From Periplaneta americana (taxonomy: Eukaryota > Arthropoda > Insecta > Blattodea > Blattidae): a DNA stretch of 64,000 nt. The notes below the pieces were generated by a model. It saw nothing but the letters and a program-made list of their open reading frames with translations, had not been told where the DNA came from and searched no databases. How positions within the stretch are numbered: position 1 is the first letter of the stretch; every line of letters starts with the position of its first letter. The position numbers and the translations under genes were made by a program. The stretch is from assembly GCF_040183065.1 (NCBI RefSeq), contig NC_091117.1, forward strand, positions 105,559,501 through 105,623,500. The letters are read 5' to 3'. Positions 9,957-10,492 of the stretch are shown piece by piece.

Positions 9957-10000
9957 GGCTTACAACTGTTTCGGTGCTATTCGACACCATCCTCAGAGCC
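9957..10000 (-). ncRNA. Hammerhead ribozyme motif, left arm
   Basis: Read on the minus strand: stem I strand GGCT, core CTGAGGA, stem II with GGTG pairing CACC, GAAA, a minimal stem III (AC/GT around loop AGTT), cleavage position A, then AGCC closing stem I. All conserved core bases are present. It differs from the right-arm copy at one loop base. Confidence 0.85.
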
Positions 10001-10061
10001 TACTAGATAACACACTACAAAGACATCTCAACACACAACACAAACAAATAAATACAACCAC

Positions 10062-10436
10062 ATAGGCGTATACAAACTCACATGCAATAGTTGCGACAGT
10101 TTCTACATTGGATAGACAGGCAGATCATTCCAAACTCGATACAAAGAACACATTAAAGCAATAACCAGAGGACACAATACATCTACATATGCCGAACACA
10201 TAACTAATGCTAACCACACATACAATAACATAAATACAGACATGGAAATCCTACACATTCAACCCAAAAACCAAAAACTCAACACACTAGAACAATATGA
10301 AATATACAGACACACTAAAACACACCCCAGTCAAATTCTCAACACACAGATCAATTTCAGAACACACACACTATTTGACACAACTATTCATCACACGAAC
10401 GCACCCACACAACAGGCAGCGAAGTTGAGATAGCGC
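10062..10436 (+). pseudogene. GIY-YIG endonuclease domain of a Penelope-like element
   Basis: The frame reads IGVYKLTCNSC, then FYIG, an in-frame TAG, then TGRSFQTRYKEHIKAI, and later LEQYEIYRHTKTH before the terminal stop. GVY and FYIG are the namesake strands, the Arg in RYKEH and the Glu in LEQYEIY occupy catalytic positions, and the early C-x2-C is typical of Penelope GIY-YIG domains. In intact copies this nuclease nicks target DNA for primed reverse transcription. The stop replaces what is usually Gln before TGR. The protein N-terminal to the domain has been lost. Confidence 0.8.
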
Positions 10437-10448
10437 CGAGATCTAGTA

Positions 10449-10492
10449 GGCTCTGAGGATGGTGTCGAATAGCACCGAAACAGCTGTAAGCC
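10449..10492 (+). ncRNA. Hammerhead ribozyme motif, right arm
   Basis: Stem I GGCT (10449-10452), core CTGAGGA (10453-10459), stem II with GGTG pairing CACC around an 8-nt loop, GAAA (10477-10480), two-pair stem III with loop AGCT, cleavage position A10488, then AGCC (10489-10492) pairing with the first stem I strand. The very short stem III matches hammerheads described from Penelope-like elements. Confidence 0.88.

What the first reader, a model, noticed from the sequence alone, without database searches (positions are those of the whole stretch)
9957..10492. Two hammerhead ribozymes in inverted orientation flanking a GIY-YIG remnant
Both arms of a 622-bp Penelope-like remnant contain a 44-nt motif with the full hammerhead core (CUGAGGA, GAAA, cleavage after A) and matched stems I and II. 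The two copies differ by one base in the stem III loop. Transcription from either side would place an active-strand ribozyme at the 3' side, so a short non-autonomous RNA with self-processing ends is conceivable. Hammerheads are known in Penelope-like elements; this inverted pair around a lone endonuclease is a neat minimal arrangement.
Basis: partly seen in the sequence, partly recalled or inferred. Interest (0 to 1): 0.8.

Follow-up and report, generated by a model that had tools for sequence, protein, structure and literature searches.

The report
Penelope retrotransposon insertion with inverted ends
This is a short, dead copy of a common Penelope-like jumping gene whose two mirrored ends, each carrying a small hammerhead-like RNA motif, are best explained as scars of how the element copied itself into both strands of one DNA break.

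Summary
A 107-nt inverted repeat (93%) surrounds a broken GIY-YIG frame, and each arm carries the same 44-nt hammerhead-like motif. The insertion is 9863-10543, flanked by a 12-bp target-site duplication, so both arms came in together.

It belongs to an RT + GIY-YIG Penelope-like (PLE) family (a loose first look named 3,875 candidates; the best 40 were scored). Of those 40 copies, 21 carry an inverted tail on the left; their inner joins differ. In all 21, one end stops at a 'long' and the other at a 'short' tail site about 42 nt apart (p=1.7e-4). A cDNA begun at the short site lacks the long tail, so I infer reverse transcription from both cut strands at two adjacent RNA sites, as reported in vitro for an Anolis PLE (PMC11167929).

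A 'self-processing minimal RNA' is not supported: the motif is unstable alone, forms a canonical core as a dimer, and in a full-insert transcript pairs with the opposite arm (43 of 44 nt). Rfam gives no match. Inverted pLTRs and PLE hammerheads are known. One other locus, L062, has the same inner join, probably by recurrence.

The parts
9851..9862 (.). left target-site duplication TGTAAAATCAAT
   Evidence: identical 12-mer on both sides; shared words of 8 nt or more in 14 of 21 inverted copies against 15 of 420 cross-paired flanks
9863..9901 (-). long-tail end of the inverted left arm, absent from the right end
   Evidence: with the adjoining arm it matches the 68-nt long tail of sister copies at 99%
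9902..10008 (-). left arm: inverted copy of the hammerhead + tail region
   Evidence: 107 nt, 93% to the right arm
9957..10000 (-). hammerhead-like motif, one base different from the right copy; predicted cut 3' of window base 9961 on the minus strand
10003..10009 (.). inner join between the inverted arm and the sense part, about 3 nt microhomology (AGA)
   Evidence: same join in L062 with 1 mismatch
10011..10433 (+). C-terminal GIY-YIG endonuclease frame of a PLE, 5' truncated, in-frame TAG at 10113-10115
   Evidence: sister copy L006 continues upstream into RT (RVT_1 E=2.1e-9); 29 CAG and 3 TAG at this codon in matches in the 30 loci scanned
10441..10543 (+). right arm: hammerhead + short tail
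10449..10492 (+). hammerhead-like motif (CUGAGGA, bulged U, stem II GGUG/CACC, GAAA, ACAGCUGU, GUA; predicted cut 3' of 10488)
10544..10555 (.). right target-site duplication TGTAAAATCAAT

Best explanation
One dead, 5'-truncated insertion of a GIY-YIG Penelope-like retrotransposon. The element's RNP cut both strands of an AT-rich target with a stagger of about 12 nt. Each 3' end then primed reverse transcription of element RNA at an internal 'tail' start site just downstream of the hammerhead: the right-hand primer at the short site, the left-hand primer at the long site about 42 nt further on. The right cDNA ran back through hammerhead and GIY-YIG; the left cDNA ran only through tail and hammerhead. 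The two cDNAs were joined at a few nt of microhomology, which left the two arms inverted. Shown by sequence: TSD, tail ends, inner joins, RT + EN coding family. Inferred: the order of steps, two priming events on RNA, and the RNP. The hammerhead motifs were carried along; here they are very likely inert, since each strand has one sense copy, the motif forms a canonical core in silico only as a dimer, and the opposite arm sequesters it.
For: 12-bp TSD. 21 of the 40 scored copies have an inverted tail on the left; 21 of 21 pair one long with one short end (17 left-long/right-short, 4 left-short/right-long, recounted), P=1/5985 given the margins, 6.5 like-ended copies expected. Shared flank words of 8 nt or more in 14 of 21 against 15 of 420 cross pairs. 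The 23 inner joins read (21 copies plus two older elements) all differ; BLAST ends overlap by up to 5 nt or leave gaps of up to 10 nt; none is palindromic (sense start and inverted end at least 111 nt apart in the reference). RT and GIY-YIG in one frame in L006, apart from its stop codon. PMC11167929 (text parts 1-2 of 4 plus found passages): PAc protein cleaves and extends both strands, starts RT at two adjacent internal sites, and the tail is the sequence between them.
Against: 19 of 40 copies show no recognisable inverted tail and mostly no clear TSD (3 of 19 with 8 nt or more), so a single-primed route or later loss must also exist. 7 of the 21 inverted copies have no shared flank word of 8 nt. 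PAc showed no start-site difference between strands in vitro, unlike the pattern here. The 40 copies are the best matches to a query that itself holds both arms, not a random sample, so 21 of 40 may be inflated. An inverted left arm starting at the short site is harder to recognise when very short. No empty site was obtained.
Confidence: 0.8

Rival explanations
1. A non-autonomous inverted unit that moves as such: the 681-bp insert is transcribed and mobilised by PLE protein.
For: A second place, L062, has the same inner join with 1 mismatch; one left-arm change of the window (G10516T) is also in both L062 arms.
Against: That change is also in L017. In the sense part L062 differs from the family majority at 54 of 497 sites and shares 0 of 6 window-specific changes (base readable at 4), while the window's sense part differs from the majority at only those 6 scored sites. 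L062 has its own long and short ends and unrelated flanks. Only 2 places with up to 3 mismatches. Single break points recur separately: L017 has inner end 1162, L024 sense start 723 against 719.
Confidence: 0.06
2. Self-priming: the cDNA folds back on itself and copies its own beginning (idea voiced for A. vaga PLEs in PMC3846280, passages read).
For: Would give inverted repeats; proposed in print for palindromic joins.
Against: The left end here, and in 17 of 21 inverted copies, carries about 40 nt of long tail that a cDNA begun at the short site does not contain; no palindrome at the 23 joins read. The 4 of 21 copies with a short left end are not excluded by the first argument.
Confidence: 0.05
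3. Two separate insertions of PLE ends in opposite orientation, or a later inversion.
For: Arms differ by 7 of 107 bases.
Against: A 12-bp TSD encloses the whole; the same architecture in 20 other copies, 13 of them with shared flank words of 8 nt or more; the arms are 4 and 2 bases from the family majority over 103 nt with no shared change.
Confidence: 0.03
4. Template switch from sense RNA to an antisense PLE RNA during one reverse transcription.
For: Bidirectional PLE promoters are discussed in PMC3846280.
Against: Needs an antisense RNA whose 5' end falls on the long tail site; two RT start sites explain both ends without it.
Confidence: 0.06

Closest known systems
Penelope elements of Adineta vaga, e.g. 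Pen2a_Av (PMC3846280, passages read)
   Same: Inverted pLTRs, TSDs of 8-10 bp in several (not all) copies, optional 31-bp tail on one of the inverted pLTRs, RT + GIY-YIG ORF
   Different: Here heavily 5'-truncated, no direct tandem pLTR noticed in the 40 copies, inner joins not palindromic
PAc / Poseidon of Anolis carolinensis (PMC11167929, parts read)
   Same: Hammerhead with an AUG at the start of stem II (here CUGAGG-AUG-G), two adjacent internal RT start sites that define a tail, both strands cut and extended, AT-rich targets
   Different: Here the AUG frame closes after 17 codons, so it is probably not the ORF start; each inverted insertion uses both start sites, one per end
L1 twin priming (recalled, not from a call)
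   Same: Second priming event on element RNA, inverted segment, microhomology join
   Different: In L1 the inverted piece comes from further upstream; here both cDNAs start in the same tail region, so the ends become inverted repeats
Retrozymes (PMC7229834, PMC7761336; passages read)
   Same: Small non-autonomous elements with type I hammerheads
   Different: Retrozymes are tandem direct repeats giving circular RNAs; here the two motifs are inverted, one per strand

Membership tests
Penelope-like element (GIY-YIG class) | RT and GIY-YIG endonuclease in one ORF | tested here: met
   Met for the family, not for the truncated window copy: sister copy L006, read with X at its one stop, gives RVT_1 E=2.1e-9 (above cut-off) in the same frame as the GIY-YIG segment. 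In that scan GIY-YIG itself was not listed at E<=0.1; alone it scores E=0.0017, below the Pfam cut-off
Penelope-like element (GIY-YIG class) | Tail: alternative ends tens of bp apart, at internal RT starts | tested here: met
   Two end classes about 42 nt apart: 32 short and 8 long right ends in 40 copies (recounted). That they are RT starts is inferred
Penelope-like element (GIY-YIG class) | TSD at insertion | tested here: met
   12 bp here; shared words of 8 nt or more in 14 of 21 inverted copies, 3 of 19 others
Penelope-like element (GIY-YIG class) | Tandem or partial tandem copies (direct pLTRs) | tested here: inconclusive
   None noticed in the 40 copies, which are 5'-truncated, 39 of 40 within about 1.3 kb of the end; L052 runs further into RT. 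Full-length copies not reached
Penelope-like element (GIY-YIG class) | Telomerase-like RT phylogeny | not tested
   No PLE reference set was used
Type I hammerhead ribozyme (PLE minimal kind) | CUGANGA...GAAA core with stems I and II | tested here: met
   stem II pairs only with one bulged U; older copy L062 has a longer stem II GGUGUA/UACACC
Type I hammerhead ribozyme (PLE minimal kind) | Stem III, or a dimer that supplies it | tested here: inconclusive
   Monomer in hammerhead form -5.7 against MFE -11.4; two copies co-fold at -30.7 with an 8-bp shared stem III. No such dimer is encoded in one strand here
Type I hammerhead ribozyme (PLE minimal kind) | Match to the Rfam hammerhead models | tested here: not met
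   No match at gathering score or at E<=10
Type I hammerhead ribozyme (PLE minimal kind) | Self-cleavage | not testable with these tools
   Needs an in vitro assay
Retrozyme | Direct repeats each with a hammerhead in the same orientation | tested here: not met
   The two motifs are on opposite strands

The most novel reading that the evidence does not exclude
PLE integration in this genome commonly runs as two mirror-image target-primed reverse transcriptions, one on each strand of a staggered cut. The two reactions are obliged to use different start sites about 42 nt apart in the element RNA, so an insertion is marked by one long and one short tail. The inverted 'LTRs' of PLEs, and the hammerhead in each, would be the direct record of this two-sided reaction by a dimeric RNP.
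Probability: 0.55. Interest if true: 0.55.

Novelty: new member of a known kind. Interest (0 to 1): 0.35.

Why it matters
The window feature itself is ordinary. What it led to is useful: the one-long-one-short ends in 21 of 21 inverted copies turn the inverted pLTRs and optional tails of Penelope-like elements into a testable integration model that agrees in its main points with the purified PLE enzyme described in PMC11167929. It also shows that an inverted pair of hammerhead motifs need not be a ribozyme device.

Tried and rejected
Rfam scan of the window and of 9850-10600: nothing. Viral-contig scans with the 140-aa GIY-YIG piece and with two hammerhead patterns: no relatives. PDB by sequence: only weak hits, best the GIY-YIG intron endonuclease 1mk0 at E=0.44. 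Substitutions in the motif in 30 copies: 33 motifs of full length gave 4 changes over 12 core positions and 23 over 32 others, too few to show selection; dropped were 2 motifs with indels and 4 right-hand motifs that the scan did not reach. Bacterial promoter/terminator scan: no excess, and not suited to this genome. Not held: Cervera 2014, Lunse 2017. Paper searches of one library: no statement of the one-long-one-short pattern in the passages that I read; PMC3846280 does say that the tail is optionally on one of the inverted pLTRs.

Not obtained, because the genome search machine did not answer: a second sample of copies, control joins, empty site, upstream walk to a full-length copy.

Full report
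What is there. The window lies at G000:C1:105559501-105623500 of a 3.23-Gb genome in 91 contigs with no name given; its content looks insect to me, perhaps a cockroach, from memory only. The 44-nt hammerhead-like motif is exact at 10449-10492 (+) and has one change at 9957-10000 (-); 100 shuffles give none. A structural descriptor finds just these two in 64 kb, and one hit in 40 Markov windows of the same size.

Extent of the insertion. Comparison with sister copies shows that the left arm runs on for about 40 nt beyond the repeat, to the 'long' tail end. Outside both ends lies the same 12-mer, TGTAAAATCAAT (9851-9862 and 10544-10555). The insert is therefore 9863-10543, 681 bp, and both arms arrived together. 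The sense part carries the C-terminal GIY-YIG frame with one stop (TAG at 10113-10115); among matches in 30 loci this codon is CAG in 29 and TAG in 3. In the longer copy L006 the frame continues upstream into a reverse transcriptase (RVT_1 E=2.1e-9, X at its stop). This is a Penelope-like element (PLE). GIY-YIG is below the Pfam cut-off and rests also on its place behind the RT.

A family, not a unit. One genome search named 3,875 candidates in a loose first look and scored the best 40; I fetched all 40. They are 5'-truncated, 39 of 40 within about 1.3 kb of the end; L052 runs further into RT. Right ends fall into two classes about 42 nt apart: 32 short and 8 long (recounted in 119). An inverted tail on the left is recognisable in 21 of 40; in L058 it is only 13 nt and in L013 16 nt. 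All 21 pair one long with one short end: 17 left-long/right-short and 4 left-short/right-long (L006, L014, L053, L055). P=1/5985 given the margins; 6.5 like-ended copies were expected, 0 seen. Two older elements in the L020 and L028 loci show the same. Shared flank words of 8 nt or more, read as TSDs, occur in 14 of 21 inverted copies against 15 of 420 cross-paired flanks, and in 3 of 19 of the others against 2 of 342 (the left border used for L052 there was too far in). The 19 copies without an inverted tail are a real limit of the model: they may be single-primed, or their inverted part may be too short to see (L004 has about 7 nt of it). The 40 are the best matches to a query that holds both arms, so they are no random sample.

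Joins. The 23 inner joins read (21 copies and two older elements) all differ. The window's join occurs at 2 places with up to 3 mismatches: itself and L062 on C4, 1 mismatch. L062 has the same break points but is about 82% identical, with unrelated flanks and its own long and short ends. In the sense part it differs from the family majority at 54 of 497 sites and shares 0 of 6 window-specific changes, with a readable base at 4 of the 6. Against this, one of the 4 left-arm changes (G10516T) is in L062 too, in both its arms, and also in L017. L017 shares the inner break point 1162, and L024 nearly the sense start (723 against 719). I read L062 as a recurrence at favoured break points in a large family; the control joins that would test this did not complete.

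Mechanism. A cDNA begun at the short site does not contain the long tail, so fold-back self-priming, suggested for A. vaga PLEs (PMC3846280, passages read), cannot make the 17 left-long copies in cis. Two separate starts on element RNA, one per target strand, can. In PMC11167929 (parts 1-2 of 4 and passages) purified PAc protein cut and extended both strands and started at two adjacent internal sites that delimit the tail. What the data here add is that both sites are used in each inverted insertion; that paper saw no start-site difference between the strands in vitro.

The ribozyme claim. The motif has the core, a 4-bp stem I, stem II with a bulged U, and a self-complementary ACAGCUGU. The bulged U makes an AUG at the start of stem II, as in PAc, where the ORF starts there; here that frame closes after 17 codons. 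Energies: hammerhead form of one copy -5.7, best other fold -11.4; two copies co-fold at -30.7 into the double hammerhead with an 8-bp stem III. PLE hammerheads are described as minimal and possibly dimeric (PMC6155905, PMC7761336, passages read). In the inverted insert there is only one sense motif per strand, and in the predicted fold it pairs with the other arm (43 of 44 nt sense, 44 of 44 antisense). For PAc, cleavage needed protein and was not needed for insertion in vitro. So I do not see a self-processing RNA device. The older copy L062 has a different, longer stem II that still pairs (GGUGUA/UACACC), which fits the motif having mattered in source elements; one such case is weak evidence. 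Rfam does not recognise the motif.

Novelty. Inverted pLTRs, TSDs, an optional tail on one of them, and hammerheads in PLEs are all in print. The specimen is a new member of a known kind. The one-long-one-short pattern is the part worth a specialist's time; I did not find it stated in the passages read, after the paper searches of one library.

Noticed in passing
L062 (C4:76890816): An old element of another PLE subfamily with the same inner join as the window's insertion and a hammerhead motif with a longer stem II.
   Followed up: partly
L029:565-608 (+): Descriptor hit for an apparently unrelated hammerhead-like motif, CTGAAGATGGC...AAGCCGAAAA, again with a U after CUGANGA that makes an AUG; could be chance.
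   Followed up: no
L010 and L030, right flanks: Two family copies with different 5' ends sit in nearly the same flanking sequence, so insertion into a repeated target is likely; could give empty sites.
   Followed up: no
window 9000-9455: Inverted repeats (45 nt, 87%; 36 nt, 78%) around a tRNA-like stretch near 9345, perhaps a SINE inside another element (by eye); ARAGORN does not call it.
   Followed up: no
window 3576-4946 (-), 34069-35031 (-), 33620-34084 (-), 19149-19640 (-), 59946-61415 (-): Other transposon reading frames: hAT-like (DUF659 + Dimer_Tnp_hAT), DDE_1 transposase with a neighbouring PHD-finger frame, DDE_3-like (below cut-off), and a reverse transcriptase (RVT_1).
   Followed up: no
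L006 flanks: This insertion lies in a trinucleotide-like tandem repeat on both sides.
   Followed up: no
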